In this document: piece after piece, positions 5,858 to 51,793 of the stretch
Numbering within the stretch: the stretch's first letter is position 1
Layout of the letters: each line of letters opens with the position of its first letter
Assembly (NCBI RefSeq): GCF_964019385.1
Contig: NC_088650.1
Location: 23,591,810-23,655,809, forward strand
Length of the DNA stretch: 64,000 nt
Source: Sycon ciliatum
Lineage: Eukaryota > Porifera > Calcarea > Leucosolenida > Sycettidae
Direction: 5' to 3'
Notes under the pieces: model-generated
The model's input: only the letters and a program-made list of their open reading frames with translations
Told to the model about the DNA's origin: nothing
Database searches by the model: none
Position numbers and translations under genes: made by a program

Positions 5858-6280
5858 GTGTATGTGCACATGTGCTTGTACTTTTGTGTGTGTTTGTACA
5901 GTGTTTGTGTGTGTGCTTGTGTGTGTGCGCGCGAACGTGTGTGTGCATTTTTGTGCACAATTCCGTTATGAAGTACAAATGATAGGTTTACCTTTTGAAC
6001 ACTCGCCAAGACTTCCGTTTCCTAAACGGCTCAAGTCACCGCGTACTCAGTATACGAGTAGAAAAGTGTTGAAATTATCAAGATTTATAAATAACGACCT
6101 GCAACCATGTACAATGTAGATAGATAGGGAACACACATTGATTGTTTTTAAAAGAATCCAGGCATTATCATGAATCATGGAACGAGTGCGTAATAATGCT
6201 CTATGTTGCGTTTTGACGATGCTGAAGGAAGGGAGCCGTCGCGATTTACTCACAACACACGCACAGAAGTCCACTCGACT

Positions 6281-7722
6281 GCAATTTCTGACACAAATTC
6301 ATAAATCCACGAGTACGCCGAGGAAGCTCAGCGGATCTCCACAAGAACTTTCGCCCATCACCTGCAATGGAATATGGGCTGTATGATACGACCAGTGGTT
6401 AACACGGGAAGTGGCGTCATTTTCCACAAATCTCGTTTCATTCACAACCATTTGACTGCAATTCAGTGCAATTTCTGCCGCAAATTCAACTCCACGAGTA
6501 CGAGGAAGCTCAGCGGATCTCAACACGAACGTTCGCCCATCACCTGCAATGGAATATGGGCTGTATGCTACGACCAGCGGCTAACACGGGAAGTGGCGTC
6601 ATTTTCCACAAATCTCGTTTCATTCACAACCATTTGACTGCAATTCAGTGCAATTTCTGCCACAAATTCAACTCCACGAGTACGAGGAAACTCAGCGGAT
6701 CTCAACACGAACGTTGGCCCATCACCTGCAATGGAATATGGGCTGTATGCTACGACCAGCGGCTAACACGGGAAGTGGCGTCATTTTCCACAAATCTCGT
6801 TTCATTCACAACCATTTGACTGCAATTCAGTGCAATTTCTGCCACAAATTCAACTCCACGAGTACGAGGAAACTCAGCGGATCTCAACACGAACGTTGGC
6901 CCATCACCTGCAATGGAATATGGGCTGTATGCTACGACCAGCGGCTAACACGGGAAGTGGCGTCATTTTCCACAAATCTCGTTTCATTCACAACCATTTG
7001 ACTGCAATTCAGTGCAATTTCTGCCACAAATTCAACTCCACGAGTACGAGGAAACTCAGCGGATCTCAACACGAACGTTGGCCCATCACCTGCAATGGAA
7101 TATGGGCTGTATGCTACGACCAGCGGCTAACACGGGAAGTGGCGTCATTTTCCACAAATCTCGTTTCATTCACAACCATTTGACTGCAATTCAGTGCAAT
7201 TTCTGCCACAAATTCAACTCCACGAGTACGAGGAAACTCAGCGGATCTCAACACGAACGTTGGCCCATCACCTGCAATGGAATATGGGCTGTATGCTACG
7301 ACCAGCGGCTAACAAGGGAAGTGGCGTCATTTTCCACAAATCTCGTTTCATTCACAACCATTTGACTGCAATTCAGTGCAATTTCTGCCACAAATTCAAC
7401 TCCACGAGTACGAGGAAACTCAGCGGATCTCAACACGAACGTTGGCCCATCACCTGCAATGGAATATGGGCTGTATGCTACGACCAGCGGCTAACACGGG
7501 AAGTGGCGTCATTTTCCACAAATCTCGTTTCATTCACAACCATTTGACTGCAATTCAGTGCAATTTCTGCCACAAATTCAACTCCACGAGTACGAGGAAA
7601 CTCAGCGGATCTCAACACGAACGTTGGCCCATCACCTGCAATGGAATATGGGCTGTATGATACGACCAGCGGCTAACACGGGAAGTGGCGTCATTTTCCA
7701 CAAATCTCATTTCGTTCACCCC
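6281..7722. repeat. ~182-bp tandem satellite, about eight copies
   Basis: Units starting GCAATTTCTG(C/A)C recur every 182 bp (about 6467, 6649, 6831, 7013, 7195, 7377, 7559), with a slightly divergent first copy at 6281 and a truncated last copy. Inner copies differ by only a base or two, while the outermost copies are more diverged, as expected from unequal exchange. The whole array lies inside the hAT-like element. Confidence 0.95.
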
Positions 7723-15497: not shown

Positions 15498-16057
15498 TAC
15501 ATATTTGACCGCTTAGAGATCACAAGTTTCTGTGGGGGTCAATAATAAGAGAGTGATAACGACTGATAAAGACTGATATTTCCTTTGTTACTCCCTTCAT
15601 TGGTTGATGTATTTTGCCTGTCAGTAGTAGTGACCGAGCCGGTCCTGGGCCAAGGTTGAACCCACTTGACCTTATGAATGGGTACTTGAACTTTGCGGTT
15701 ATTAATTAAGTGGCCACTTGAACTTTTAATTGGATAAGTGGTAATGAAGTGGCCACTTGAGATCTGAAGTGGTTTTGAAGTGGGCCAGGTGTCATATTTA
15801 ATTGGATTAATGATTAAGTGGTATTTGAAGTGTCTCTCGACGTCATAAGTGCTTTTAAAGTGGTGGGTGTGGTTGTTGACAAGAGTCACTGTCTGGGAAT
15901 GTGTTCTGGAACCTTCTAGGTATTCCCAGGCTAATATTATTAGAACTAGCTCTACGGTATGATGTCATAGGGGGGTATTTTAGGAGGTGTGACTCATTTA
16001 TAAATTGATATCGACAGACATGTAAGTTGATAGGGTTGAAAGCACTTTTAGCGGGGG

Positions 16058-16181
16058 TATTTGTATTACAAAGAAACATCTCGAACATCGATGCAAAAAG
16101 AACCTGTCAATAGCATGCGATATTTGTATTACAAAGAAACATCTCGAACATCGATGCAAAAAGAACCTGTCAATAGCATGC
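16058..16181. repeat. 63-bp tandem duplication upstream of polymerase
   Basis: The unit beginning TATTTGTATTACAAAGAAAC occurs twice in direct tandem (16058 and 16121), about 120-240 bp before the polymerase start. It is mirrored in the right arm at about 26640-26760, so it predates the arm duplication or was copied with it. Confidence 0.9.
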
Positions 16182-16226
16182 ACTCTGTACTGCATTCTAC
16201 CAACACTCATTGCTCACTCCACACAG

Positions 16227-16234
16227 TATATAAA
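16227..16234 (+). promoter_or_regulatory. TATA box of Polinton polymerase
   Basis: TATATAAA at 16227-16234 lies 67 bp before the ATG at 16301, in a typical position for a core promoter. The mirrored copy lies upstream of the right-arm gene. Confidence 0.55.
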
Positions 16235-16300
16235 CCGCAGCTCACACCCGCAACTGTATCACAGGTTGGTGAAACAGTGCTACCGCTACTCCTTTGAAAC

Positions 16301-17560
16301 ATGAAGCGGATGCATAGTTCAAGCGGCGGTGGCGGTGGTGATAGTGATGTGGGAGTTGGTGAGGATGACAGCTCTTCACCCCCAAAATTGAGAAAAGAAT
16401 CCGCACTTACTTTGACTCGTACAGCTCCTCGTGGATTCTTGAGAGAGTATAGAGCCAGTTTCCTAGACGAGCAGAAGGACGTTCTTGGCGTTCTCAACGA
16501 TCTATCGCCAGATCTGTATGAAACAATGGTGCACGAGCTAGGCATCCAGCAGTTCAAAGCTGTACTGGTTCTTTGTGTCACTGTTGAGAAGCCCAATGCC
16601 GCAGGTGCAATCGTCTACGCCTCTCCATTTTTCCGAAGCCGGCCTATGACTGTGTTGAACGTGAGCAACATTCCAGGTCTACTAACCGCCGCCTTCGACG
16701 GGATCACTGCAAAGGTGGACGCTTGGGTGCAAGGTGGTTCAGGCTGGGCTGTGAGTAATGTGAAAACTGCACATCTTGATATTTGCAAGTATCGTCCAAT
16801 GCGCATGTCGTCGTACCTTCCTCTACCTAAAAAGTTAGCTTCGTCAAAGGCCATCATCAATGTGAAGAATGACGACGAGCAGTGTCTGAAGTGGGCTCTT
16901 CTGTCTGCCCTGCATCCAGCTGTGCAACATGCAGAACGTGTGAGCAAGTATGCGCAGTATGCGCAGAGTCTCAACTTTGACGGTGTAGAGTTCCCTGCAA
17001 CCATAGATGATGTGTACAGGGTGGAGAAGGCCAACTCGCTGAACATCAACGTGTTTGCATTTGAAGAAAACTACATCATTCCCATAAAGTTATCAGGTAG
17101 TGACAATGCAATAAATCTCCTGATCCTGCAAGATGATCTCCTTAGCCATTACTGCTGGATAAAGGACTTTAGCGCTCTATGTGCCAGCCAGACAAAGTCC
17201 CAACACAAGAGGTTCTTCTGCATGCGATGCCTCTCCGCACATCGCAGCGATACCACTCTGAAGAAGCATCAACTATACTGCAGCGATGTGAAGGCAGCGA
17301 CAGTCCAGATGCCAAAAGCAGGCGAGCAGCTCAAGTTCACGGAGATACAGAGGAAGATGAAAATGCCGTATGTGATCTATGCCGATACTGAGTGTCTGCT
17401 GAAAGCAACGTCTCCAGAGCGCCATGGGAAGCAAACTGTTCGTGAAGCTGAACACGTACCATGTGCAGTATCGTATGTCGTCGTACGCTCTGATGGTGTA
17501 CTGAAGAACACTTTCACGTTCAGAGGTGAGTCCTTCAGCATAACTAATTAAATGTACTGC

Positions 17561-17611
<51 letters not shown>

Positions 17612-18349
17612 GTGAAATATCAGCGTTAATCGTATACCCAGTCGTTAAATCTTTATTCTCACAATATCCAGTGGTCAATAAGAGAGATAATATTTTATGA
17701 AAAAAAGGAGGAAAGAGTGATGAATAATTTGTTGTTGTTTCTACTTTTGTATATGTAGGAGATGATCCGATTGAAAAGCTTTTCGAAGAGCTCTCCAAGG
17801 AGGAAGAGCGCATAGAGGAAGACCTGAAGAACATACGTCCTATCATCATCACGGATGATGAAGAGGTGCAGTTCCGCAATGCCACAGAGTGCTGGATCTG
17901 TGGCAAGAAACTGAAGGGTGCTGATCGAGTGCGCGACCACGACCACCTCACCGGACTGTACAGAGGAGCTGCACACAACGCCTGCAATTTGAAGTTCCGC
18001 ATCGTGCCAGAGCACCATCCCATCCCCGTTGTATTTCACAACCTGAAAGGGTATGATGGACATCTCCTGATATCCAGCATCGGCCTCACGTCCATGAACA
18101 CTGAGGAGTACATTGACAGACAAGGACGGCGTCGACGCAAGGTGAAGGGGCGCGTTACTGTCATACCCAACAATATGGAGCGGTATGTGTCATTCTCGTG
18201 GGGGAGATTCCGATTTATTGACAGTCTTTCCTTTCTGAACGCATCGCTGGACAAGCTAGTGAGCAACACGCCTCGCGACTCGTTCTTTCATCTCAAGTCC
18301 CTGGCTTCGTCGTACAGCAACAACGCCCCGGGCAGCAGCAGCAGCAGCA

Positions 18350-18382
<33 letters not shown>

Positions 18383-20184
18383 GTGCACCGGGCTCGTCTA
18401 GCAATAACCTGCTGGATCTCCTGCATCGCAAAGGTGTCTATCCCTACGAATACATGAACAGCAGCGCTAGGTTTTCCGAGACTGGTCTTCCTGCAAAGGA
18501 AGACTTTTACTCACGCCTCTCAGAGTGCCACATCAGCGATGAGGACTACTGCCATGCCCAGCGTGTGTGGACTGCATTCGGCTGCAGCGACATGGGCGAC
18601 TACCATGATCTCTACCTGAAGACCGATGTGCACCTTCTTGCAGATGTGTTTGAGAAATTTAGATGCACTGCAATGGTCACGTACGATTTGGACCCGACAC
18701 ACTACTACACCCTGCCTGGATTCGCGTGGGACGCCCTTCTGAAACATACAGGAATTTCGCTCACTCTGCTGGACGACGTGGACATGCATCTGTTCGTCGA
18801 GCGCGGTCTTCGTGGCGGTGTTACAATGGCGTCACACCGCCACGCCAGGGCGAACAACAAGTACATGAGCTCACACGACCCTGAGCAGGCGTCAACATAT
18901 CTTCAATACCTCGACGCGAACAACCTGTACGGCTGGGCCATGTCGCAGCACTTGCCGACATCAAAATTCCAGTGGTGTGTCCCCAGTGACGAACTCCTGC
19001 AGAAGATCCTCACGCAGCCAGATGACGCAGACACTGGGTACATGGTGGAGTGTGATCTGTCAGTGCCCACAGAGTTCCACGATCGCCTGAACGACTACCC
19101 ACCCGCACCGGAGCGTGTAACCATCACCGAGAGTATGATGTCGCCATACCAGCGCGACTTGATTGCAGCAGATCCTGTCTCCGGACTGAGTGCTCCGAAA
19201 CTGGTCCCGAACCTCATGCCAAAGCAGCGCTACGTAGCACACTACCGTAACCTCAGGCTGTACAGTCGTCTAGGTCTGAGGATCGATGCTGTACACCGCG
19301 TGCTCAGTTTCCGCCAAGCTCCGTGGATGAAGCCCTACATCCAGCTGAACACGGAGCTTCGGAAGAAGGCGAAGAACGATTTCGAGAAGGACTTCTTTAA
19401 ACTCATGAATAACGCTGTGTTTGGGAAGACAATGGAGAATGTGAGGAGAAGAATCTCAATTAGACTGCTGCGTGTGGAAGACGAGGAAGATACCATTCTC
19501 ACAGCTGTGGCCAAGTCCACCTACGTCCGCCATGTCCTCTTCGACAACGGGCTTGTGGGCGTCGAGAACAGGAAGCTTGCGGTCCACCTGAACAAGCCGG
19601 TGTACGTTGGCATGAGCATCCTGGAGCTGAGCAAGGAGCTGATGTACAGATTTTACTATGACGAGCTCCAGCCACGCTACGGAGACCGCATGAGCCTGCT
19701 GTACACAGACACGGACTCGCTGGTGCTGCTGTTCCGCACGGAGAACCTCTATGCGGACATGAAGAGTATGGCCGATCAGTACGACACCAGCAACTTTAGC
19801 CCCGACAGTCCTCTGTACAGCGAGAGTAATAAGAAGGTTGTAGGTAAATTTAAGGACGAGCTCGGAGGGAAGCTCATGACAGAGTTCGTGGCGCTCAGAT
19901 CCAAAATGTACGCGTACGATGGCGAGGAGAGTGGTCAGCGTGCAAAGGGCGTCAAGAGAGCGGTGACGAGAAGATTCACGATCGCGGACTACCGTCAGTG
20001 TCTGGTCGACAGGACAAGGATGTCACACGCAATGACCACCCTGCGCAGCCATTCGCATCGTATCTTCACGGAGACGATGACCAAGTCGTCTTTGTCGCCG
20101 TTCGACAGCAAACGATACATCCGAACGGACGGTGTCAGCACACTTGCACATGGGCACCACCGCATCGCACTGCTGGATGACTGA
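16301..20184 (+). CDS. Protein-primed DNA polymerase B, Polinton type (spliced)
   Basis: Two exons, 16301-17525 and 17759-20184, are joined across a 233-bp GT-AG intron (GAG/GTGAGT to TATATGTAG) holding a (GT)n run. The exons join in phase 1 to give 1,216 codons. All expected motifs are visible. The 3'-5' exonuclease has YADTE, FHNLKGYDGHLL and YLKTDVHLLADVF. Palm motif A is YLDANNLYGW, motif B KLMNNAVFGKTMENVR and catalytic motif C YTDTDS. The C-terminus reads RYIRTDGVSTLAHGHHRI, usual for this family. A zinc-binding CWICGKK..VRDHDHLTGLYRGAAH stretch lies at the exon 2 start. A Ser-rich insert (about nucleotides 18330-18400) varies by one codon between the arms. The gene copies the linear element using a protein primer. 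It looks intact and TATA-driven. Confidence 0.9.
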
Positions 20185-20510
20185 ACAATGATGGTTGTGG
20201 TTGACAATCACAATTATTAGTCACACCCTGTACCATATCAATTCCATTTGTCTAATGAGTTACTGATCTTGATCTTGATGATGATGATGATGATGATGAT
20301 GTTGATGTTATTATTTTTCTACATACTACATAATTTTGTTTTCTCCATAACTTAACTAGACTTTTAATATAGCTTAACATAATTGCGTGAAATGCAATCG
20401 CACAGTTGATGATGTTTACGATGATGTCAATGTTTGATGTTGATGTTGATGATGATAATAAGAATAAGATTGCTCTTGTCGGCAGCTAGAGCTTGCTCAA
20501 TTGTCCGTTG

Positions 20511-21400
20511 TCAATCCAGGAGTTGAACTTGTCCGGGTAGCCTTTCCACTTGACCAGAGACTGTCCGGGGCGTTTGCGCAGGACTTTCTCCACGCGGAAC
20601 TTGGTTTTCCTTGGTTTTCTGCAGTTGATGTTCGTAGAAACTGCCCTGAATAGGCTCGTTCATGAGATCTCGAATGTTGTAGGTGGGTGGTTGGGTGGGT
20701 AGAACTCTATTCACGACGAACACCTCTTCAGTCCAATTGGGTGTGTAGCCCTTTTTCGAAATGAGCTTTGCTCACAGCAATTCTCACTTCATCGTTCACA
20801 GCATAGCGTCGCCGCGCTGTGCGTGCATCTGGACTTTTGCTGGGGTGATCCTGTACAAACGATGCATTACGCTCCTCGGACGCCTCGGCAGGTTTCATAC
20901 CAATACTGCGGTACGGTGCTTGCTGGTGTTGTAGTCATGTACAAGTTTGGACTTTGGGTAGCACTTTGATGTAGACATTTGTTGATTTTGCTGTAAAGTG
21001 TTTGAGCATTCTGTTGAATCGCTCTGCAACCACCGCCCCTTGCCGTCGTTATGAGTGCTGTACATGCTAATACCGTTGTCAGCAAGCCACTGCTTGACTG
21101 TTGCGTTGTAGAACTCTTTACCCTCATCGACCCACAGCTTTCGAGGTGAGCGCTTGCTGCTGGTCACGATGCTGCGAAACGCATCTCTGACAAGTGCGCC
21201 CGTCTTGTTCTGGAGCGGTACAACCCACCATGCATAGGGACCGAAAAGATCGATGACGGTCAGCAAATGTCGAGTGCCATTGTCATTTTTTTTTTTTTTT
21301 TTTTTGCAAACGCCTGCATGTCCACCAGATCTTCACTCCATTATGTCTATGATGTCATCCAACTCGTGCACTATCACACGTCTGCGGGGGAAGCGTACAC
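20511..21400 (-). pseudogene. Polinton integrase (retroviral-type DDE), decayed
   Basis: Reading from high to low coordinates, the minus strand shows DLVDMQAFAK, then an expanded A-run (the T-run near 21289-21306). Next come HLLTVIDLFGPYAWW, the second catalytic region (LWVDEGKEFYN..WLADNGISMYSTHNDGK), then, in another frame, AERFNRMLKHF. The C-terminal VFVVNRVLPTQPPTYNIRDL and GSFYEHQLQKT lie at 20723-20620. At least three frame changes and the expanded A-run break it. In an active Polinton this enzyme inserts the element and creates the 6-bp duplication. It cannot be functional as read. Confidence 0.8.
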
Positions 21401-21658
21401 GTCTTGGTCTGTGCATTTCACTGGCTTTAAACGCTCCATCCACACATCATCGTCATCCTCACTAGCACTGACACCACTGTCAGTGCCTGGGGCAGCAGCA
21501 GTTGCACCGCTGTCACTCCCAACACCGCCAGTCCCACCACCTGCGGTGGCGTTTGTGATTGAATCACTGTCAACGTCCAGGATCAGGGGATCCTTGTGCA
21601 ACCTATTGTCAGTGAAGTCACAGTTAGTGGCGTGCAAGTACTCGCACAGTACCTTCAA
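21374..21658 (-). other. Open frame upstream of the integrase relic
   Basis: A 94-codon minus-strand frame contains a Gly/Ala/Ser-rich, acidic stretch (SASEDDDDVW) and sits just before the integrase core. It could be the degraded integrase N-terminus or an unrelated open frame. No domain is recognised. Confidence 0.25.
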
Positions 21659-23406
21659 TAGTACCCAGCTCCAAGAACAGTCTCCCTACGAGAACTGCAT
21701 ACCGACCACACAGTGCATGATAAAATTAAAAATAATAATAATAAAAATATTGACTGGTTATAAAAATGTTATTGAATAAAGTCATGTATGTTGATGATGA
21801 TGATGGCCTGTGTGTGTGTGTGTGTGTGCTCTCTTGACGCCCTTTGCACGCTGACCACTCTCCTCGCCATCGTACGCGTACATTTTGGATCTGAGCGCCA
21901 CGAACTCTGTCATGAGCTTCCCTCCGAGCTCGTCCTTAAATTTACCTACAACCTTCTTATTACTCTCGCTGTACAGAGGACTGTCGGGGCTAAAGTTGCT
22001 GGTGTCGTACTGATCGGCCATACTCTTCATGTCCGCATAGAGGTCCTCCGTGCGGAACAGCAGCACCAGCGAGTCCGTGTCTGTGTACAGCAGGCTCATG
22101 CGGTCTCCGTAGCGTGGCTGGAGCTCGTCATAGTAAAATCTGTACATCAGCTCCTTGCTCAGCTCCAGGATGCTCATGCCAACGTACACCGGCTTGTTCA
22201 GGTGGACCGCAAGCTTCCTGTTCTCGATGCCCACAAGCCCGTTGTCGAAGAGGACATGGCGGACGTAGGTGGACTTGGCCACAGCTGTGAGAATGGTATC
22301 TTCCTCGTCTTCCACACGCAGCAGTCTAATTGAGATTCTTCTCCTCACATTCTCCATTGTCTTCCCAAACACAGCGTTATTCATGAGTTTAAAGAAGTCC
22401 TTCTCGAAATCGTTCTTCGCCTTCTTCCGAAGCTCCGTGTTCAGCTGGATGTAGGGCTTCATCCACGGAGCTTGGCGGAAACTGAGCACGCGGTGTACAG
22501 CATCGATCCTCAGACCTAGACGACTGTACAGCCTGAGGTTACGGTAGTGTGCTACGTAGCGCTGCTTTGGCATGAGGTTCGGGACCAGTTTCGGAGCACT
22601 CAGTCCGGAGACAGGATCTGCTGCAATCAAGTCGCGCTGGTATGGCGACATCATACTCTCGGTGATGGTTACACGCTCCGGTGCGGGTGGGTAGTCGTTC
22701 AGGCGATCGTGGAACTCTGTGGGCACTGACAGATCACACTCCACCATGTACCCAGTGTCTGCGTCATCTGGCTGCGTGAGGATCTTCTGCAGGAGTTCGT
22801 CACTGGGGACACACCACTGGAATTTTGATGTCGGCAAGTGCTGCGACATGGCCCAGCCGTACAGGTTGTTCGCGTCGAGGTATTGAAGATATGTTGACGC
22901 CTGCTCAGGGTCGTGTGAGCTCATGTACTTGTTGTTCGCCCTGGCGTGGCGGTGTGACGCCATTGTAACACCGCCACGAAGACCGCGCTCGACGAACAGA
23001 TGCATGTCCACGTCGTCCAGCAGAGTGAGCGAAATTCCTGTATGTTTCAGAAGGGCGTCCCACGCGAATCCAGGCAGGGTGTAGTAGTGTGTCGGGTCCA
23101 AATCGTACGTGACCATTGCAGTGCATCTAAATTTCTCAAACACATCTGCAAGAAGGTGCACATCGGTCTTCAGGTAGAGATCATGGTAGTCGCCCATGTC
23201 GCTGCAGCCGAATGCAGTCCACACACGCTGGGCATGGCAGTAGTCCTCATCGCTGATGTGGCACTCTGAGAGGCGTGAGTAAAAGTCTTCCTTTGCAGGA
23301 AGACCAGTCTCGGAAAACCTAGCGCTGCTGTTCATGTATTCGTAGGGATAGACACCTTTGCGATGCAGGAGATCCAGCAGGTTATTGCTAGACGAGCCCG
23401 GTGCAC

Positions 23407-23461
<55 letters not shown>

Positions 23462-24180
23462 CGGGGCGTTGTTGCTGTACGACGAAGCCAGGGACTTGAG
23501 ATGAAAGAACGAGTCGCGAGGCGTGTTGCTCACTAGCTTGTCCAGCGATGCGTTCAGAAAGGAAAGACTGTCAATAAATCGGAATCTCCCCCACGAGAAT
23601 GACACATACCGCTCCATATTGTTGGGTATGACAGTAACGCGCCCCTTCACCTTGCGTCGACGCCGTCCTTGTCTGTCAATGTACTCCTCAGTGTTCATGG
23701 ACGTGAGGCCGATGCTGGATATCAGGAGATGTCCATCATACCCTTTCAGGTTGTGAAATACAACGGGGATGGGATGGTGCTCTGGCACGATGCGGAACTT
23801 CAAATTGCAGGCGTTGTGTGCAGCTCCTCTGTACAGTCCGGTGAGGTGGTCGTGGTCGCGCACTCGATCAGCACCCTTCAGTTTCTTGCCACAGATCCAG
23901 CACTCTGTGGCATTGCGGAACTGCACCTCTTCATCATCCGTGATGATGATAGGACGTATGTTCTTCAGGTCTTCCTCTATGCGCTCTTCCTCCTTGGAGA
24001 GCTCTTCGAAAAGCTTTTCAATCGGATCATCTCCTACATATACAAAAGTAGAAACAACAACAAATTATTCATCACTCTTTCCTCCTTTTTTTCATAAAAT
24101 ATTATCTCTCTTATTGACCACTGGATATTGTGAGAATAAAGATTTAACGACTGGGTATACGATTAACGCTGATATTTCAC

Positions 24181-24235
<55 letters not shown>

Positions 24236-25269
24236 GCAGTACATTTAATTAGTTATGCTGAAGGACTCACCTCTGAACGTGAAAGTGTTCTTCAGTACAC
24301 CATCAGAGCGTACGACGACATACGATACTGCACATGGTACGTGTTCAGCTTCACGAACAGTTTGCTTCCCATGGCGCTCTGGAGACGTTGCTTTCAGCAG
24401 ACACTCAGTATCGGCATAGATCACATACGGCATTTTCATCTTCCTCTGTATCTCCGTGAACTTGAGCTGCTCGCCTGCTTTTGGCATCTGGACTGTCGCT
24501 GCCTTCACATCGCTGCAGTATAGTTGATGCTTCTTCAGAGTGGTATCGCTGCGATGTGCGGAGAGGCATCGCATGCAGAAGAACCTCTTGTGTTGGGACT
24601 TTGTCTGGCTGGCACATAGAGCGCTAAAGTCCTTTATCCAGCAGTAATGGCTAAGGAGATCATCTTGCAGGATCAGGAGATTTATTGCATTGTCACTACC
24701 TGATAACTTTATGGGAATGATGTAGTTTTCTTCAAATGCAAACACGTTGATGTTCAGCGAGTTGGCCTTCTCCACCCTGTACACATCATCTATGGTTGCA
24801 GGGAACTCTACACCGTCAAAGTTGAGACTCTGCGCATACTGCGCATACTTGCTCACACGTTCTGCATGTTGCACAGCTGGATGCAGGGCAGACAGAAGAG
24901 CCCACTTCAGACACTGCTCGTCGTCATTCTTCACATTGATGATGGCCTTTGACGAAGCTAACTTTTTAGGTAGAGGAAGGTACGACGACATGCGCATTGG
25001 ACGATACTTGCAAATATCAAGATGTGCAGTTTTCACATTACTCACAGCCCAGCCTGAACCACCTTGCACCCAAGCGTCCACCTTTGCAGTGATCCCGTCG
25101 AAGGCGGCGGTTAGTAGACCTGGAATGTTGCTCACGTTCAACACAGTCATAGGCCGGCTTCGGAAAAATGGAGAGGCGTAGACGATTGCACCTGCGGCAT
25201 TGGGCTTCTCAACAGTGACACAAAGAACCAGTACAGCTTTGAACTGCTGGATGCCTAGCTCGTGCACCA

Positions 25270-26288
25270 TCTTTACTTATAAAATAGAGGCACCTGTGAC
25301 GTGTGTCTGTGTGTGTGTCACGCTCCTTATAAAGAAGAGGCACCTGTGACGTGTGTTTTTGTGTCACGCTGAAGCGCTGCGGAGCAGCGCTGCCCTGAGC
25401 ACGCGAAGCGTGCGAACAGTGTAGCACAGTGTAGCTAGCGGCCGCAGAAGCACTGAGCACGCGAAGCGTGCGAATCGTGTAGCTAGCGGAAGCAGCCACA
25501 GCACTAGCACTGAGCACGCGAAGCGTTCGAATCGTGTAGCCACCGCCACGTGCTGAGCACGCGAAGCGTGCCAACAGTGTAGGTACGTAGACCCGGGTGC
25601 ACGTGCTCGAATCAGAAACGATTTGACAGGTGTGCAATTTCTCATCTGTAAATCTCAGAGGCGATGGAACAGGGAAGAGAGTCTGGCTTGACCCACCCAG
25701 CAGGAATTCAGAACATAGGTGCGCTACAACACAAGCTACAGACGCAGTAAAATTGTCGTATTTCCTTCGGATTTTTTATTTCTACGGTGGTAGCGCTTAT
25801 ACTTATACTATAGCAGACACGATCAGTACGAGTAGCAGTAGCAGCCGCGCGCAGAAGCACTGAGCACGCGAAGCGTGGGAATCATGTAGCCACCTAGCCT
25901 AGGCCATAGGTAGCACTAGCAGCCGCACAAGCGCTGCGGACCACGTGAACCGTTCTCTGCAAATAGAAACATCTCCAACAAAAGGATACAAAAGATCTGC
26001 ACTGACTGCACTCTGCATCTGATCTGCAGTGAAGAGCGCATCGCACTTTTGTTCGTAAGTTTTTGAATTTTTTGAGCCGCTTCATCCGCCACCAGGTGAT
26101 GGACAACCCTGACCAGCCTCCCGAAGGCGTAACAGACGTCCCTCCTTCTCCTTCCAACGATGAAGAACCTCCCTCACCAGGACTTCAGCGGTCTGGCCAC
26201 CACCACGTGCTGAGCACGTGTGCTGTTCATGTACTTGCTTCACCCGCATGCACATTCGGCCAGGCAACGCTGGCGGGGGTGCTGCTAG
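25270..26288 (+). mobile_element. Non-autonomous Helitron, 1,019 bp
   Basis: The element starts TC (25270) and ends CTAG (25285-26288 region; CTAG at 26285-26288). It is inserted between host A and T with no target duplication. A short hairpin CCAG-GCAACG-CTGG lies 12 bp before the CTAG. These are the diagnostic Helitron features. The empty site is preserved in the mirrored arm between 16526 and 16527. The 5' end has two copies of TATAAA..AGAGGCACCTGTGACG. The body has several degenerate copies of a GAGCACGCGAAGCGTGCGAA word. No Rep/helicase is encoded. A shorter relative lies at 57161-57479. Confidence 0.9.
26099..26197 (+). other. Exon-like insert carried by the Helitron
   Basis: The segment from about 25620 to 26195 is absent from the other Helitron copy. 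Near its end an ATG (26099) opens a Pro/Glu/Ser-rich frame (MDNPDQPPEGVTDVPPSPS..) preceded by a leader-like stretch. It looks like a captured 5' exon of a host gene, but no protein family is recognised and the frame simply runs on into Helitron sequence. Confidence 0.3.
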
Positions 26289-27193
26289 TTGTTTCATACA
26301 GATCTGGCGATAGATCGTTGAGAACGCCAAGAACGTCCTTCTGCTCGTCTAGGAAACTGGCTCTATACTCTCTCAAGAATCCACGAGGAGCTGTACGAGT
26401 CAAAGTAAGTGCGGATTCTTTTCTCAATTTTGGGGGTGAAGAGCTGTCATCCTCACCAACTCCCACATCACTATCACCACCGCCACCGCCGCTTGAACTA
26501 TGCATCCGCTTCATGTTTCAAAGGAGTAGCGGTAGCACTGTTTCACCAACCTGTGATACAGTTGCGGGTGTGAGCTGCGGTTTATATACTGTGTGGAGTG
26601 TGCAATGAGTGTTGGTAGAATGCAGTACAGAGTGCATGCTATTGACAGGTTCTTTTTGCATCGATGTTCGAGATGTTTCTTTGTAATACAAATATCGCAT
26701 GCTATTGACAGGTTCTTTTTGCATCGATGTTCGAGATGTTTCTTTGTAATACAAATACCCCCGCTAAAAGTGCTTTCAACCCTATCAACTTACATGTCTG
26801 TCGATATCAATTTATAAATGAGTCACACCTCCTAAAATACCCCCCTATGACATCATACCGTAGAGCTAGTTCTAATTAGCCTGGGAATACCTAGAAGGTT
26901 CCAGAACACATTCCCAGACAGTGACTCTTGTCAACAACCACACCCACCACTTTAAAAGCACTTATGACGTCGAGAGACACTTCAAATACCACTTAATCAT
27001 TAATCCAATTAAATATGACACCTGGCCCACTTCAAAACCACTTCAGATCTCAAGTGGCCACTTCATTACCACTTATCCAATTAAAAGTTCAAGTGGCCAC
27101 TTAATTAATAACCGCAAAGTTCAAGTACCCATTCATAAGGTCAAGTGGGTTCAACCTTGGCCCAGGACCGGCTCGGTCACTACTACTCCTGTC

Positions 27194-31775: not shown

Positions 31776-32115
31776 TGTTGCAAACCACCAGTTCTCAATT
31801 GGGAAAGGCCTTCGCGCTTATGGCGTTGTATTCGTCGCAATGTTGTCTTTCGACTCCGCCGTACCGCTGATGTTGCTGCATGGCATACGCTATATGCGCT
31901 GTGTGTGTTTTTGCTGTATACGCTGTTATGTCCAGTTTTATATGCTTATGTTTTGCATGTACGCTGTTTTGCATGCTATAAATAGCTGGTGTTATTAGTG
32001 TTCATTGTTAATTATCAGATGAAGTGAAATATACTGTGTAAAGGAAAAGAGTTGTCCTCGTGCCGTGTGGTCGTACGATCCTGACAATTTAGAGAATCTT
32101 GCAGGGTTCACAACA
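31776..32115 (+). repeat. 5' LTR of the BEL/Pao element
   Basis: 340 bp, starting TGTTGC and ending CACAACA. It contains a TATA-like GCTATAAATAG at about 31975-31985, which is probably the core promoter. A short tandem GTGTTTTTGCTGTATACGCTG region lies upstream of it. Confidence 0.95.
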
Positions 32116-32116
32116 T

Positions 32117-32129
32117 TTGGCGACCACGC
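32117..32129 (+). promoter_or_regulatory. Primer-binding site
   Basis: TGGCGACCACGCC lies two bases after the 5' LTR. Its complement ends in CCA, as a tRNA 3' end would. The identity of the tRNA is not certain. Confidence 0.6.
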
Positions 32130-32145
32130 CAGGATAGGAGCGAGC

Positions 32146-35100
32146 ATGGCGGAGGAACTATGGAACAATTTGGAAGCCAGCTTTATCGACAATGGAGAGC
32201 GGTTAGGATTAGAAGTCGAGTTGTTGAAGGTACATGTGGAGCAGAGGCTCCAACAGCACGCGGAGCGTGAGGAGCGCAGTGCCAGACGGCGAGAGGAGGC
32301 GCTCCGCACCGAGTTTGCCAAAACACTAAAGGAGATTAACGAGCGCATCGCCAATGCGCAGGAGGGTGAGGGTAAAGCCACGATGGGAGGTACAGAGGAG
32401 TCTCCCAGTCACAGCGGTGGGCGTCAACCGGTGATGAAAATCCCCTCATATGATGGAACGCAGCCATTGGAGCGTTATCTTGACCTGTTCGAGGACATCT
32501 GTTCCAAGAACGAGTTCGAAGAAAGCGAATGGCTGCTGCGACTGCGCATTGCGCTAGCGGGTAGCAAAGCGGAGAGGATATGTATTGGATGCAATAATTA
32601 CGAGGAAGCAAAACGAGAGTTGCTTGCCTCGCTCGGAAAGACTCCGGATAAAGCGTGGAAGACATTGCTGACAGGCAAGCAGCGGTCAGATGAGTCGTTT
32701 CATCAATACGTTGTCCGTGTTTGCCGAGAGGTAGAGGTGTGGGCCACACTCGCTATGACAGAAGATGGCGAGGTGGACACCAAGTATAGCGCCGATATAG
32801 GGAAAATGTCCCCGGTGCTGCAAGCAATGGCAAAGCAGGTAATCTTGGAGCAATGCGGACCTGAGATGAAGACGTACCTGGTCGAACGGCAGTGCTACGG
32901 GATGTCACTGCGCCAGGTACAGGAGCACGGCGCGTCTTACCAGGTCGCGCACGGACGACAGGGTGATACTGCCAGGAAGCCAGTAGAACGATCCGTGCCA
33001 AGGCCCACGGCGTCGGCACAGTGCATGGCGATATCGGTCGCAGATGCAGAGAAGCAGCTAAAGTCGCTGCCACAGGAAGGGAGAAAGGGTTTTCTGCAGC
33101 GAGAGAGACTCTGCTGGAACTGCCTTAAGTATGGCCATATGGCCAGAGAATGTCGGTCAGGCTCGAGATGCACGAAATGCCAGAGGAAACACCACCTGCT
33201 AATACATGATGTGTTGGATAGAGCAGGTTACAGCCGGGAGAAACCGACTGAGATAGTTACGGAGAAGAATGTTGGGTCGTGCTGTCTACACTCGCCAAGT
33301 GTGCGGCTGATGACCGGAGTGGCACGAGTTGAGGGAAGAACTCGAAACGCGAAGGTTCGCGTGTTCCTGGACTCGGGTGCTGAGGCGTCATTCGTGACTG
33401 CAGCGTTGGTGTCAGCAATCGATGCAGAACACGTTGGGGTTGAAAATGTAGAGGTGAAGCCGTTCGGCGCGGAACCAACCCAACAGCGCATGGATAAGTA
33501 CGCCATCACGATCCAGGGTAGCTCCGCTAGCATTCGGGTACGCGCGTTCGTGAAACCAACGCTTGAGCTGGACCTGAAGTGCGCAAGTCCGCAGACCATT
33601 GCGCAGTGGCACAGTTGGGGAGTAGAGCTGAGTGACAAGCCTCAACAAGGGACATCAGACGAAATACATATGCTGATTGGTGCAGACTATATCAACGCGG
33701 TACTGCACAGCAAGAAGGAAGTTAATGGTGAGACGGTGTGGAACACAGAGATAGGTAATGTATTATCTGGTCCAGCGTCTGCACCAAGTCGAAACAGTCA
33801 GCCGGTGACCGTGTCATGTGTCACAGCCCACATCGACAAACTATGGCAGTTGGATGAACCTCCAGAACAACATCAGCACCTGCCATCTTTCCCGTTATGT
33901 CGCCAGGGCAGCGGGTACCAAGTGGGTCTCTTGTGGCGAAATGAGCGTCGGCCAACGGATAACTTTGCCCAAGCTAGAGTCATCGCAACGCGGCTTCTTG
34001 AAAAGCTGAAGAGGAATGGGAAGCGTGCGCTCTATGATGATGTGCTGATCAGGGAGTACCGCGAGCTTGGAGCAATTGAGCTGGAGCCATGTGAGAGCGA
34101 TGCCGGGTACTATGTACCGCATCATGGTGTGTTCCGCGAGCACGCTGCAACCACGAAGTTAAGAGTGGTGTTCAATGCCTCGGCGACGGCGCCAGATGGC
34201 AAGTCGTTGAACGACATGGTTGACCCTGGACCGTCGCTATTGCCGAGTCTCGCAGGTATGCTATTACGGTTCCGTGAATATAAGAGCGCGCTGCAAGCGG
34301 ACATCCGCAAGGCTTTCTTCATGGTCGCGGTTAATCCCGAAGACCGTCCGTACCTGCGTTTCTTGTGGCCCGGTCGAAGCGACAGCGATGAACTGTTAAC
34401 CTGGAGGCTAACGAAACTGCCATTTGGCGTAAACTGCTCGCCATACATGCTTACTGCGGTGATTCAGCATCACTTGAAGGAGCTACGGGCGTTGTCTGCA
34501 CCCAAAGAGCGAGATCGTATTGATCTCTTGCTCACGAGTTTCTACGTTGACGATTTGGTCTCTAGTGTCTCAAATGCCTCGGAAGCCAAGGAGATGCAAG
34601 AGTTCAGCGTGCGTGTGCTTACGGATGCTGGCATGGAGTTACGCAAGTGGCGAGGCAACGAAATCCCGTGCGATCCAGAGGCCGGAGATAAAGTCCTCGG
34701 TCTGAAATGGAAAACCAGTGATGACTTGCTCAGCATAGCAGCGCTAGGCGAGTCCAATAGGCCGTCTGTTTGGACCCGGCGATCCCTCCTCAAGTGTGTT
34801 GCATCAGTGTTTGATCCGCTAGGTCTAGCAGCACCGGCAGTTGTGCCGGGAAAGATACTGCTACAGCAAGCCTGGAAAGTCGGAGGCGACTGGGATGATA
34901 TGTTGCCTGATGGCATCGCAGCCGCATGTGCGCAATGGTGGGGAGAGTTGGCCGAAGTGGTGAGCATTGACATACCACGTTGGATTTGCTGCAATCTTGA
35001 CACGCCGATTGCGCTTCATGCCTTCGCCGATGCCAGTGAGAAAGCGTTTGGATGTTGTTTGTATGCAGTCGTCAATGGACAGTCGCACTTGGTATTTGCC

Positions 35101-37062
35101 AAGGCCAAAGTGTCACCTGTGTCTCCGCCCACGTTAGCCCGCCTTGAGTTACAAGCAGTATGTTTAGCGGCTCGCTACGCTGAGTTTGTGGTGAAGGAGC
35201 TGCGTGTTACCGTCACGCAAGTCTATGGCTGGACTGACAGTCTCACTACCGTTCATTGGATCAGTAATCCATCGTACAAATGGAAAACATTTGTGGCTAA
35301 CCGCGTCAGTCAAGTCCAAGAGATATCGAAGAAGGTCGGCATTGTGTGGAACCATTGCCCGGGCCTTCACAACCCAGCAGATTTACCGTCGCGTGGGAGT
35401 AGTGCACAGCAGATCCGTAGTCCGTTCTGGAGGGGCGGACCAACCTGGATCACGGAGCCCAATGGCTGGCCCACCGCATCCTCAACCGCAGCTACAGATG
35501 AGTCCAGTGTAGAAGTACGAGTGTCAGCCACCACCTGTAGTCGAGAATCTGATAAGGAATGGTGGCTCCGTTTCAGTAAATGGTCGAGGGCACAGGGCAT
35601 GGTGACTCGGATGTTGCAGTGGAAGCACACTGAGCCTCGTGCTGAACTCTATTTTGCAGCAGACAACGTATTGTACCGCATCGTTCAAGCCGCATGTTTC
35701 GCTGAGGATCTTGAGCTGATCAAGCAAGGTCAACCAGTGAAGCCCGGGTCGAAGGTGTATCAGCTTGCACCGTTTCTGGATGAGCATGGAGTGCTCAGAG
35801 CCGGGGGACGACTTCAGCACAGCGAGTTGGCGTATGGAGCCAAGCACCCAGTCCTGTTAGGCAAACATCATCTGACCGATTTGCTGTTGGAGAAAATGCA
35901 TGTTGAAAGGATGCACCAAGGTGTAGAAGGAGTCTTGTCGTTTATCCGTCAGAAATTCTGGATTATCGGTGGTCGACGAGCGCTACGCAACATTACTCAG
36001 CGATGTGTTACATGCCGCCGCTACAAGGCTAAGGCTGCCTCAGAAGTCTGCCCGCCGCTGCCAGAAGACCGAGTTGTTCACGAGAGGCCGTTCGCAACTA
36101 CCGGCATCGACTATGCTGGTCCGTTGTACGTGCGCCGTGGTGAGTCATCTCCGAAGGTATGGATAGCATTGTTTGTGTGTGCCACCACCAGGGCAGTTCA
36201 CTTGGAGGTGGTCGATAGTTTAAGTACCGAGTCATTTTTGATGGCATTTCGGAAGTTTGTCGCGAGACGTAGTTTGCCGTCTCGGATCAGGTCTGACAAC
36301 GCTACAACGTTCAAGGCGGCATCTGACAAACTGAGTGTGCCATGGATGTTCAATCCTCCAGCTGCACCATGGCATGGAGGCTTCTATGAGCGAATGGTTG
36401 GTACAGTGAAGAGTGCCTTGAAAAAGGTAATGGGAACAGCGTTTCTGAAGGTCCAGGAGCTTGAGACCCTCTTGTATGAGGTTGAAGCAGTGGTGAATAG
36501 TCGTCCGCTAACTTATGTGTCTGATAGCCTGGATGAGCCACCAGTAACCCCTGCAATGATGATGGGTGACATCTGGATGTCGTCAGAGAAGCCAGCAGGT
36601 ACCCTGGACGCTGCGCAGATGTCATCGAGATTGCGTTACCTCAGTCGGACACTGGAGCATGTCAAGAATCGTTGGGAGGTGGAGTACCTAAGTCAGCTGA
36701 ACAAACACCAACAGACCATGTCGCGCCCTTTAGCTGTGGGTGATGTTGTCTTTGTTCTCGATGATACCAAGCGCAAACAGTTCTGGCGTTTGGGACGGAT
36801 CATCGAGTTATTCCCTGGTCGAGATGGTAAGCGTCGTGTTGCCAAGGTTAAGTTGAGTACCAGTACCCTGTTGAGGCCGATCCAAAGGTTAGTGCCGTTA
36901 GAAGTATCGTCACAGGACGTGGCTCCTGGGCTTGCAGATACCGCTCAACCTGCTATCGTCCCTCAGCAGCCAGCGTATGAACCGTCAGCACCGTTACCAC
37001 CACCACGGCAGCAGGAGATAACGCGTTCTGGGCGCGTAGTCAGAGCCCCGGATCGTTTTTGA
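32146..37062 (+). CDS. BEL/Pao Gag-Pol polyprotein
   Basis: Intact 1,638-codon ORF from ATG 32146 (upstream codons in this frame lie in the LTR leader). Order of domains: a coiled-coil-like charged Gag region; zinc knuckle CWNCLKYGHMARECR with a second CxxC..HH (about residue 323); aspartic protease VFLDSGAEASFV (about 406); reverse transcriptase RVVFNASA (about 673), LQADIRKAFF and the catalytic FYVDD (about 800); RNase H HAFADASEKAFG (about 956) and WTDSLTTVHW (about 1028). Integrase follows, with an HHCC zinc domain (RMHQGVEG..CVTCRRY, about 1255-1288), then DYAGPL, RSDNATTF and PWHGGFYERMV, the D,D,E core (1318-1420). LPFGVNCSPYML and YVDD place it in BEL/Pao rather than Gypsy. A C-terminal Pro-rich tail follows. 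Confidence 0.95.
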   Translation: MAEELWNNLEASFIDNGERLGLEVELLKVHVEQRLQQHAEREERSARRREEALRTEFAKTLKEINERIANAQEGEGKATMGGTEESPSHSGGRQPVMKIPSYDGTQPLERYLDLFEDICSKNEFEESEWLLRLRIALAGSKAERICIGCNNYEEAKRELLASLGKTPDKAWKTLLTGKQRSDESFHQYVVRVCREVEVWATLAMTEDGEVDTKYSADIGKMSPVLQAMAKQVILEQCGPEMKTYLVERQCYGMSLRQVQEHGASYQVAHGRQGDTARKPVERSVPRPTASAQCMAISVADAEKQLKSLPQEGRKGFLQRERLCWNCLKYGHMARECRSGSRCTKCQRKHHLLIHDVLDRAGYSREKPTEIVTEKNVGSCCLHSPSVRLMTGVARVEGRTRNAKVRVFLDSGAEASFVTAALVSAIDAEHVGVENVEVKPFGAEPTQQRMDKYAITIQGSSASIRVRAFVKPTLELDLKCASPQTIAQWHSWGVELSDKPQQGTSDEIHMLIGADYINAVLHSKKEVNGETVWNTEIGNVLSGPASAPSRNSQPVTVSCVTAHIDKLWQLDEPPEQHQHLPSFPLCRQGSGYQVGLLWRNERRPTDNFAQARVIATRLLEKLKRNGKRALYDDVLIREYRELGAIELEPCESDAGYYVPHHGVFREHAATTKLRVVFNASATAPDGKSLNDMVDPGPSLLPSLAGMLLRFREYKSALQADIRKAFFMVAVNPEDRPYLRFLWPGRSDSDELLTWRLTKLPFGVNCSPYMLTAVIQHHLKELRALSAPKERDRIDLLLTSFYVDDLVSSVSNASEAKEMQEFSVRVLTDAGMELRKWRGNEIPCDPEAGDKVLGLKWKTSDDLLSIAALGESNRPSVWTRRSLLKCVASVFDPLGLAAPAVVPGKILLQQAWKVGGDWDDMLPDGIAAACAQWWGELAEVVSIDIPRWICCNLDTPIALHAFADASEKAFGCCLYAVVNGQSHLVFAKAKVSPVSPPTLARLELQAVCLAARYAEFVVKELRVTVTQVYGWTDSLTTVHWISNPSYKWKTFVANRVSQVQEISKKVGIVWNHCPGLHNPADLPSRGSSAQQIRSPFWRGGPTWITEPNGWPTASSTAATDESSVEVRVSATTCSRESDKEWWLRFSKWSRAQGMVTRMLQWKHTEPRAELYFAADNVLYRIVQAACFAEDLELIKQGQPVKPGSKVYQLAPFLDEHGVLRAGGRLQHSELAYGAKHPVLLGKHHLTDLLLEKMHVERMHQGVEGVLSFIRQKFWIIGGRRALRNITQRCVTCRRYKAKAASEVCPPLPEDRVVHERPFATTGIDYAGPLYVRRGESSPKVWIALFVCATTRAVHLEVVDSLSTESFLMAFRKFVARRSLPSRIRSDNATTFKAASDKLSVPWMFNPPAAPWHGGFYERMVGTVKSALKKVMGTAFLKVQELETLLYEVEAVVNSRPLTYVSDSLDEPPVTPAMMMGDIWMSSEKPAGTLDAAQMSSRLRYLSRTLEHVKNRWEVEYLSQLNKHQQTMSRPLAVGDVVFVLDDTKRKQFWRLGRIIELFPGRDGKRRVAKVKLSTSTLLRPIQRLVPLEVSSQDVAPGLADTAQPAIVPQQPAYEPSAPLPPPRQQEITRSGRVVRAPDRF

Positions 37063-50898: not shown

Positions 50899-51699
50899 CT
50901 GTTGCTCTCAGGTGCGGATGTTGCCATAGTGACTGAGACGAAACTAACAGTGGATAAATGCTCTCACAGTGCATCTATGATCCCGGGATACTGTGGCCCG
51001 ATTCGCCGAGACCGAACAGAACACGGAGGTGGCATTGGAGTCTAGATCAAAGCCGGCATCGCGTACCAGCATCTGGCCAGTGCAACAGCAAAACTGTCAT
51101 AGGTGCAGCCTATCGCCCTGGTTCCTGCGCTGACAATGATCTGGCTCTACTCGAGCACTTAGACCAAAACATAGATACCATGCGGCAGCATGGTATTAAA
51201 GCACATGATTCTGGCTGGAGATTTTAATGTTCACAGCACGTCCTGGCTTGGCAGCTCTCGAACGACAATCGCAGGGGAGTTCTTGGAAGAAATCAGTGCA
51301 ACACACTGTCTTGTCCAGCACGTGACCCAGCCAACCCGTGGACCAAACACATTGGATCTCGTCTTGTCCGACTTTCCTGGCACTGTCCACACAGCAGTAT
51401 CATCTCCCATCGGGCGCTCTGACCACTGTGAAGTATTGTCCAACTTTCAGGAAATCACTCCTGTACTGGAGCGGCCAACAAGCAGGAAAGTATGGCGTTA
51501 TGGCCAAGCAGACTGGGGCAGACTGAGGGCACATTTCCGCAGCTTTGACTGGGCTGCTGTCGTCTGCGATGTCCCCGAACTTGCATGTGAACAACTCACA
51601 ACTGTAATTCTGGATGGAATGGACACGTTTATACCATCTAAGACCCTGACAGTACGGACGACAGACCCTTGTTGGTGGACACCTGAGTGCAGCACTGTA

Positions 51700-51793
51700 A
51701 AGTAAAAAGTAAATTATCGTATCCGTTCCCGAAGGGAACTCACGACGGCCGCTAACACCCGATAAACCCTAGCGGCAGATGCAGCGCCTAACG
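51700..51793 (-). mobile_element. 94-bp retro-insert with 13-bp target duplication
   Basis: GTGCAGCACTGTA occurs at 51687-51699 and 51794-51806, bracketing 94 bp. On the minus strand the insert ends AATTTACTTTTTACTT after a small stem TTCCCTTCGGGAA, like the 3' end of a LINE or SINE. Without it the endonuclease/RT frame continues. It is the shortest insertion in the window with a clean duplication. Confidence 0.75.

What the first reader, a model, noticed from the sequence alone, without database searches (positions are those of the whole stretch)
15623..27187. A Polinton converted into one giant inverted repeat with two polymerase genes
Seen: AGTAGTAGTG/CACTACTACT ends, exact 6-bp CCTGTC duplication, 4,338-bp and 4,340-bp arms (Helitron removed) each holding the polymerase B gene, and a short centre with a dead integrase. 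Known: Polintons have short terminal repeats and one polymerase. Inference: the element is either a transposing palindromic derivative, like defective interfering forms of protein-primed viruses, or arose in place by foldback replication. A self-priming linear genome copied by its own polymerase could generate such palindromes, and the left polymerase looks intact.
Basis: partly seen in the sequence, partly recalled or inferred. Interest (0 to 1): 0.92.

Follow-up and report, generated by a model that had tools for sequence, protein, structure and literature searches.

The report
Palindromic Polinton clan in a sponge
The sequence is one copy of a family of virus-like jumping elements in a calcareous sponge whose members are giant mirror-image DNAs, which suggests that they copy themselves by running out along one arm and back along the other.

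Summary
At 15623-27187 lies a Polinton with an exact 6-bp CCTGTC duplication and two 4.34-kb inverted arms (3 substitutions apart), each with a polymerase B gene, around a 1.9-kb centre with a broken integrase. Contig lengths place the window in the Sycon ciliatum assembly.

The new point: it is not alone. In the same genome 16 elements carry the integrase remnant twice, as inverted pairs, and 5, this one included, carry the polymerase gene's 5' half twice. Four fetched whole are palindromes from end to end. Of 19 elements of this clan whose ends I read, 18 have exact 6-bp duplications. Sixteen share one palindrome centre and 6 keep part of it. Arms inside 7 elements differ by 0-2 bases in 1.3-3.2 kb, most elements by more. 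Conventional Polintons with a 294-bp repeat and an open integrase also exist.

Best reading: a non-autonomous snapback Polinton lineage that moves as palindromes. The window copy most likely lost its palindrome centre by deletion; it is not a Polinton newly converted in place.

The parts
15617..15622 (.). left target-site duplication CCTGTC
   Evidence: read directly
15623..19961 (+). left arm of the palindrome (4,339 bp)
   Evidence: self-comparison
15623..16011 (+). 389-bp terminal repeat of the type shared with the other palindromic elements
   Evidence: 94.7-96.9% over 385-395 bp to six other ends; 90-97% for further ends
16298..17525 (+). left polymerase B, exon 1 (ORF 16298-17551)
   Evidence: aligns to the N-terminal part of other Polinton PolB proteins
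17526..17758 (+). presumed intron with GT-AG ends, holding a TG microsatellite
   Evidence: no transcript checked
17759..20184 (+). left polymerase B, exon 2 (ORF 17728-20184), DNA_pol_B_2, TDTDS motif, C-terminus inside the centre
19962..21827 (.). unique centre
20489..21716 (-). integrase remnant: residues 118-538 of the conventional protease-integrase, in four pieces in different frames
21805..21828 (.). inner junction: a TG run joined to the inverted polymerase gene, 1 bp shared
21828..27187 (-). right arm of the palindrome, 4,341 bp plus Helitron
21782..24064 (-). right polymerase B exon 2, C-terminus lost at the junction
   Evidence: matches residues 1-766 of 833
24245..25276 (-). right polymerase B, rest of exon 1, cut by the Helitron
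25270..26288 (+). non-autonomous Helitron in the right arm only
26804..27187 (-). right terminal repeat (lacks the 5-bp insertion found on the left)
27188..27193 (.). right target-site duplication CCTGTC

Best explanation
The element is a member of a non-autonomous, palindromic (snapback) Polinton lineage of Sycon ciliatum that has lost its palindrome centre by deletion. SHOWN: many elements of this family are inverted dimers with good terminal repeats at both outer ends; the four read whole are palindromic to within about 30 bp of the middle, apart from small indels; in C2, C4 and C11 the middle is a degenerate terminal repeat that lacks its outer 73 bp and ends in a short hairpin; the integrase is broken in 6 of 6 palindromic or derived elements checked; conventional Polintons with an open integrase frame exist in the same genome. 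INFERRED: an ancestor lost one protein-primed end, and the broken end was sealed as a hairpin. The polymerase, started at the one good end, then copies up the arm, round the hairpin and back down, giving a palindrome with two good ends. An integrase supplied by a conventional Polinton inserts it with a 6-bp duplication. Because each cycle passes through a hairpin (or copies one arm from the other), the arms stay alike inside an element while elements diverge. In the window copy a deletion later removed the middle, as partly happened in six other copies.
For: (1) 16 elements with the centre/integrase block as inverted pairs: 32 of 40 scored places, 343 candidates. In 10 of the 14 whose ends I compared, the block lies equally far from both ends to within 90 bp. 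(2) Four elements fetched whole align with their own reverse complement from end to end. (3) Exact 6-bp duplications of different sequence in 18 of 19 clan members whose ends I read. (4) One shared centre: full or nearly full in 16 elements, part of it in 6 more (40 of 96 candidates scored). (5) The polymerase 5' half as an inverted pair in 5 elements including the window (40 of 678 scored). Two of them, C14c and C10, also have the intact centre, so the undeleted form of the window type seems to exist; two 750-base pieces of the C14c arms match at 745 of 745 aligned bases. (6) Inside 7 elements the arms differ by 0-2 of 1,342-3,221 bases; different elements differ mostly by 5-45. Private substitutions carried by both arms: 14; by one arm only: 7. 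(7) Element C11 has a segment of about 2.5-3 kb unlike that of C2, alike in both its arms. (8) The last part of the window's centre (21713-21827) is shared with the palindromic elements at about 98% and lies outside the match to the conventional integrase region. (9) Precedent: hairpin-capped linear DNA replicates in yeast into an inverted dimer, and such palindromes can then lose part of one arm (PMC4689423).
Against: No other scored copy has the window's own junction. Central deletion and direct asymmetric snapback give the same structure, and the 1-bp overlap fits both. C14 and C1a differ from each other by only 0-1 bases over 3,220, and C2 and C4 by as few as 2, so within-element likeness is not always tighter than between elements. 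In 4 of 14 elements the block is 0.5-3.5 kb off symmetry (C11b, C9b, C3, C13); only C9b was examined for the cause (inserts). In-chromosome gene conversion could also homogenise arms. No extrachromosomal hairpin or dimer has been seen; movement is inferred from duplications. C1a has no exact duplication. Part of the window's 21713-21827 stretch (from 21758) has an 80% match just inside the terminal repeat of the conventional copies, so that sequence is not wholly private to the palindromes.
Confidence: 0.7

Rival explanations
1. Direct asymmetric snapback: the window copy never was a full palindrome. During replication of a one-armed element the new strand switched at the TG run onto its own complement in the polymerase gene and copied back to the end; the product then integrated.
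For: The junction lies in a TG run with 1 bp of overlap. AAV defective genomes include such asymmetric snapbacks (PMC8235507, passages). No other scored copy shares the junction.
Against: Elements with two polymerase 5' halves and an intact centre exist (C14c, C10), and six other elements show partial loss of the centre, so deletion from a palindrome needs no extra kind of event.
Confidence: 0.2
2. In-place rearrangement: a conventional Polinton at this site became palindromic through fork switching or gene conversion in the chromosome.
For: Terminal repeats at both ends would let a switched strand return to the right flank and keep the duplication.
Against: The window's terminal repeat is the 389-bp type of the palindromic elements, not the about 294-313-bp type of the conventional ones, and its centre ends in sequence of the palindromic lineage. 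It would have to be repeated at many other sites.
Confidence: 0.06
3. Assembly artefact: the arms were joined wrongly.
For: Long inverted repeats are a known weak point of assembly (recalled); no reads were available here.
Against: Matching 6-bp duplications at 18 of 19 elements, unlike flanks, private mutations and one-arm inserts (Helitron in the window; about 5 kb in C9b).
Confidence: 0.03

Closest known systems
Polinton/Maverick (polintovirus, adintovirus) transposons
   Same: AGT-repeat ends, 6-bp duplication, type B polymerase and retroviral-type integrase; the conventional copies here also have a collagen-like gene and candidate ATPase, capsid and protease genes.
   Different: Vertebrate Mavericks have terminal repeats of 46-1,447 bp (mean 402) and one polymerase gene in the described layout (PMC8097293, section 7). 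The palindromic copies have repeats that run to the middle of the element, two polymerase genes or parts of them, a broken integrase (6 of 6 checked) and no match to the capsid, ATPase or protease candidates.
Snapback defective genomes of AAV (PMC8235507, abstract and passages)
   Same: Self-complementary molecules keeping one end of the parent, in symmetric and asymmetric forms.
   Different: AAV primes from a self-folding end (recalled), not by the protein priming inferred for Polintons; its snapbacks are by-products in a virus stock, not a lineage fixed at many genomic sites.
Inverted dimers from hairpin-capped DNA (ODIRA model, PMC4689423, abstract and section 9)
   Same: A closed end is copied through, giving an inverted dimer that integrates; palindromes can then lose part of one arm.
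   Different: Yeast chromosomal origins and homologous integration, not a transposon with its own ends.
Adenovirus incomplete-particle genomes with long inverted ends (recalled, no call)
   Same: Protein-primed linear DNA giving palindromic defective forms.
   Different: Not tested here; not integrated, not inherited.

Membership tests
Polinton/Maverick | protein-primed type B polymerase gene | tested here: met
   DNA_pol_B_2 above cut-off; relatives include an adintovirus PolB (P0115). Protein priming itself was not tested.
Polinton/Maverick | retroviral-type integrase | tested here: inconclusive
   rve remnant present, below Pfam's cut-off, in four pieces; open over the full 538 residues in the two conventional copies
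Polinton/Maverick | 6-bp target duplication and AGT/ACT ends | tested here: met
   CCTGTC; AGTAGTAGTG ends; motif as in PMC8097293
Polinton/Maverick | capsid, ATPase and protease genes | tested here: not met
   tblastn of the conventional copy's candidate capsid, ATPase and protease part and two further ORFs: no hit at E 1e-3 in the window element or in the pieces held of C2, C4, C11, C14, C11d, C9b, C2b; hits in the second conventional copy, and a polymerase control hit throughout. The names are recalled from sequence; Pfam gave no capsid or protease hit.
Polinton/Maverick | short terminal inverted repeats around a one-copy interior | tested here: not met
   arms of 4.34 kb here and 7.5-7.9 kb in four whole palindromes; 294 bp in a conventional copy
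Snapback (self-complementary defective) genome | inverted copies of one genome end joined at the other side | tested here: met
Snapback (self-complementary defective) genome | replicates and moves with help of the full element | not testable with these tools
   inferred from broken integrase and exact duplications

The most novel reading that the evidence does not exclude
Sycon ciliatum carries a self-perpetuating lineage of palindromic Polintons whose replicating form is a hairpin with a single protein-primed origin. Every cycle copies one arm into both, so mutations and rearrangements enter both arms together, and the lineage has split into several palindromic subfamilies, one with two polymerase genes and one with a TFIIB-like gene, all parasitic on conventional Polintons for the integrase.
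Probability: 0.5. Interest if true: 0.88.

Novelty: new variant of a known kind. Interest (0 to 1): 0.8.

Why it matters
Palindromic defective genomes are known as by-products in virus stocks (for AAV, PMC8235507). Here such forms appear as an inherited lineage with many copies, several subfamilies and arms that evolve together. If copy-back is the replication mode, Polintons have a second genome form. It would also link transposon biology with the hairpin-capped inverted dimers proposed for yeast and human amplifications, and the many copies make the model testable from sequence alone. I found no report of palindromic Polintons in searches of open-access full text (I saw listings, 20 of 44 papers and all those found in the others, and passages or single sections of five papers); subscription papers and preprints are not held.

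Tried and rejected
Assembly artefact was rejected on duplications, unlike flanks and arm-specific changes. A fresh conversion of a conventional Polinton was rejected because the terminal repeat and the end of the centre are of the palindromic type. A flip of the loop between copies was considered and dropped: in a palindrome the orientation of the middle is only the orientation of insertion. The TFIIB-like gene of the palindromes gave weak Pfam hits only (12 of 12 members of alignment A2, the query included, hit PF08271, best E 0.0025; the query's score is below the cut-off) and no convincing solved-structure match, so its name is tentative. Search of viral contigs gave 0 loci from one protein and 2 loci from an alignment of 14; the parts held of these two contigs (14,601 of 17,398 and 12,607 of 15,128 bases) have no long inverted repeat. 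In one search, 38 apparent differences between the C14 arms remain after masking; the profile puts 46 of 48 unmasked ones in one block beside the 66-bp indel, and one search shows 1 mismatch in 5,463 and 0 in about 1,964 aligned bases, so I read them as misalignment. In one search the arm split was wrong for C11 (its middle was not found), so I use. The search with the left flank for an empty site did not complete.
Full report
OBSERVATION. Self-comparison of the region finds two inverted arms, 15623-19961 and 27187-21828, alike at 99.3-99.7%. Base by base they differ by 3 substitutions, indels of 5, 4 and 3 bp, and a 1,019-bp insert in the right arm. CCTGTC stands on both sides and the flanks are otherwise unlike.

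GENES. The left polymerase reads as one gene with an intron: exon 1 ends at a GTGAGT donor (17526) and exon 2 starts after an AG at 17758 (no transcript checked). The two exons line up with successive parts of other Polinton polymerases. Exon 2 has DNA_pol_B_2 and its last 223 bases lie in the centre, so the left copy is the complete one. The right copy is broken by the Helitron and by the junction. The centre holds an integrase remnant that matches the conventional 538-residue protein in four pieces in different frames.

HOST. Several of the best protein relatives are annotated in Sycon ciliatum. Four contig lengths quoted there (50,554,555; 28,965,150; 46,714,003; 28,390,300) equal those of contigs C2, C13, C3 and C14 of the window's genome; a fifth (97,974,678 against 97,973,678 for C1) differs by 1,000. 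I take the window to be from that assembly.

CONVENTIONAL POLINTONS. C9:25319126-25335968 is 16,843 bp with an exact TAAGTT duplication and only a 294-bp terminal repeat. It has a collagen-like gene, candidate capsid, penton and ATPase genes, a protease-integrase fusion, and a polymerase in the same place relative to the integrase as in the window. Only rve passes Pfam's cut-off; collagen, chromodomain and AAA hits are below it, and capsid, penton and protease are names recalled from sequence. A second copy at C9:33.08-33.10 Mb is 99.2-99.9% alike over the parts compared, and its integrase is open from end to end.

A CLAN OF PALINDROMES. Searching the genome with the window's centre plus 300 bases of the right arm scored 40 of 343 candidates: 32 places form 16 inverted pairs and 8 are single, the window and both conventional copies among these. 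For 14 of the 16 I compared distances to the ends: 10 are symmetric to within 90 bp, and C11b, C9b, C3 and C13 are 0.5-3.5 kb off. C9b has inserts; the others were not examined. Four elements fetched whole (C2, C4, C11, C14) align with their own reverse complement from end to end, C14 with a short unaligned stretch at an indel. An arm of C2 is: terminal repeat, a gene with a TFIIB-like zinc ribbon, a short piece of the conventional left end, a 5'-truncated polymerase, the broken integrase, a second, inverted and diverged copy of the TFIIB-like region, and an inverted terminal repeat that lacks its outer 73 bases. The short piece carries the C-terminal part of the collagen-like gene; no match to the candidate capsid, ATPase or protease was found in the window element or in the pieces held of C2, C4, C11, C14, C11d, C9b and C2b. 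At the very middle about 30 bases form a short hairpin; three pieces of 81-91 bases fold with z-scores of -6.7 to -14.6. The integrase is in three or four pieces in 6 of 6 elements checked: the window, C2, C4, C14, C11, C9b. The TFIIB-like gene is 98-100% identical over about 780 bases in most of 40 scored places (103 candidates; the lowest rows are 93-95%), in 15 elements as an inverted pair.

TWO-POLYMERASE MEMBERS. A query from the 5' half of the polymerase gene (40 of 678 candidates scored) finds inverted pairs in five elements: the window, C11d, C14c, C10 and C4c. Three more elements have one full-length match, and the other rows are partial. The two outer 5.7-kb pieces of C11d match at 99.75% with 4 substitutions and each holds the whole of exon 2, though its exon 1 is split between frames. 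Two 750-base pieces of C14c match at 745 of 745 aligned bases, and one is 99.3% like the window. The ends of C4c were not seen.

INSERTION. Exact 6-bp duplications, different at each site, are read at the window, C2, C4, C11, C14, eleven of eleven pairs in one table, and C9b and C2b: 18 of 19. C1a has none. C11b's is a run of G.

ONE CENTRE, OFTEN DAMAGED. A 221-base query from the C2 middle (40 of 96 candidates scored) finds the whole or nearly whole centre in 16 elements: 14 at full length, C13 over 215 bases at 85%, C9b over 188. Another 6 (C11d, C5a, C3, C2b, C14b, C11b) have only a part, stopping at query position 151, 151, 135, 126, 123 and 123. Further rows at 85-89% over 83-116 bases match ordinary terminal repeats or places I did not look into, and are not counted. 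The window has no copy of the 24-base core and no row. So the palindrome most likely arose before these copies spread, and loss of the middle is common.

ARMS EVOLVE TOGETHER. Over the shared polymerase-integrase region the arms differ by 0-2 bases in 7 elements: C2 1, C4 1, C14 0, C1a 1, C5b 0, C9b 2 in 1,649, window 2 in 1,342. Different elements differ mostly by 5-45; the exceptions are C14 and C1a (0-1) and C2 and C4 (2-4). Private substitutions found in both arms number 14 (6 in the window), in one arm 7 (2 in the window). On full arms, C2 and C4 differ at 25 sites where each element's arms agree, and within an element at 7. C11 has a segment unlike that of C2, alike in both its arms. A tree pairs the arms of all four elements, with support 0.82 for C4 and 0.999 or more for the other three. 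Inserts present in one arm remain there (window Helitron; C9b), which speaks against strong conversion in the chromosome.

HOW THE WINDOW COPY AROSE. Its terminal repeat is the 389-bp type of the palindromes. Its centre runs on, past the part shared with the conventional integrase region, into sequence shared with the palindromes, and stops in the TG run that in other palindromes leads towards the TFIIB-like copy. From 21758 that stretch also has an 80% match just inside the conventional terminal repeat. There it jumps to the inverted polymerase gene with 1 bp of overlap. Compared with C2 this equals removal of about 5.7 kb around the middle (48691820 to 48697508). Two elements with the polymerase 5' half twice, C14c and C10, have the centre, so the undeleted form of this type seems to exist. 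Of the two polymerase differences that can be polarised with P0001 and P0006, one is new in the left arm and one in the right, so both arms have aged since they were identical. Direct asymmetric snapback cannot be excluded.

MECHANISM. Shown: anatomy, inverted pairs, shared centre, duplications, joint evolution of arms, broken integrase. Inferred: loss of one protein-primed end, hairpin sealing, copy-through to an inverted dimer, integration in trans. Hairpin-capped DNA does become an inverted dimer in yeast and such dimers can lose part of an arm (PMC4689423, abstract and section 9). AAV makes symmetric and asymmetric snapback genomes (PMC8235507, abstract and passages).

LIMITS.

Noticed in passing
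window 32023-37062 +: 1,679-codon open frame with Pao peptidase, reverse transcriptase, integrase zinc-binding and DUF5641: a BEL/Pao retrotransposon with a long open frame.
   Followed up: no
window 6280-7719: Array of 7.9 copies of a 182-bp unit at 98%, open in overlapping 138-codon frames.
   Followed up: no
window 51175-53777 +: Endonuclease and reverse transcriptase frames of a non-LTR retrotransposon.
   Followed up: no
L021:1097-1891: TFIIB-like zinc-ribbon gene carried in both arms of many palindromic Polintons, nearly identical between copies; 16 protein relatives found, one from a transcript set whose prefix I recall as Sycon.
   Followed up: partly
L012:4976-6874 and L010:1931-6494: Long frames that look like reverse transcriptases (read by eye, no family search) inserted between polymerase and integrase in two one-polymerase Polintons.
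   Followed up: no
L023, L024 (C5:23.98-24.04 Mb): Cluster of broken Polinton ends lying close together or inside one another.
   Followed up: no
C11:3736370 and C5:20222986 in the window's genome: Two elements of different subfamilies lose the shared palindrome centre at the same query position, 151: one shared deletion or a hot spot.
   Followed up: no
L021, L022, L017, L018, L040, L041, L015, L016, L019, L025: The palindromes with the TFIIB-like gene keep the C-terminal part (from residue 92, 164 or 196 to 275) of the conventional collagen-like gene at 98-100% identity, on both sides where both were held.
   Followed up: no
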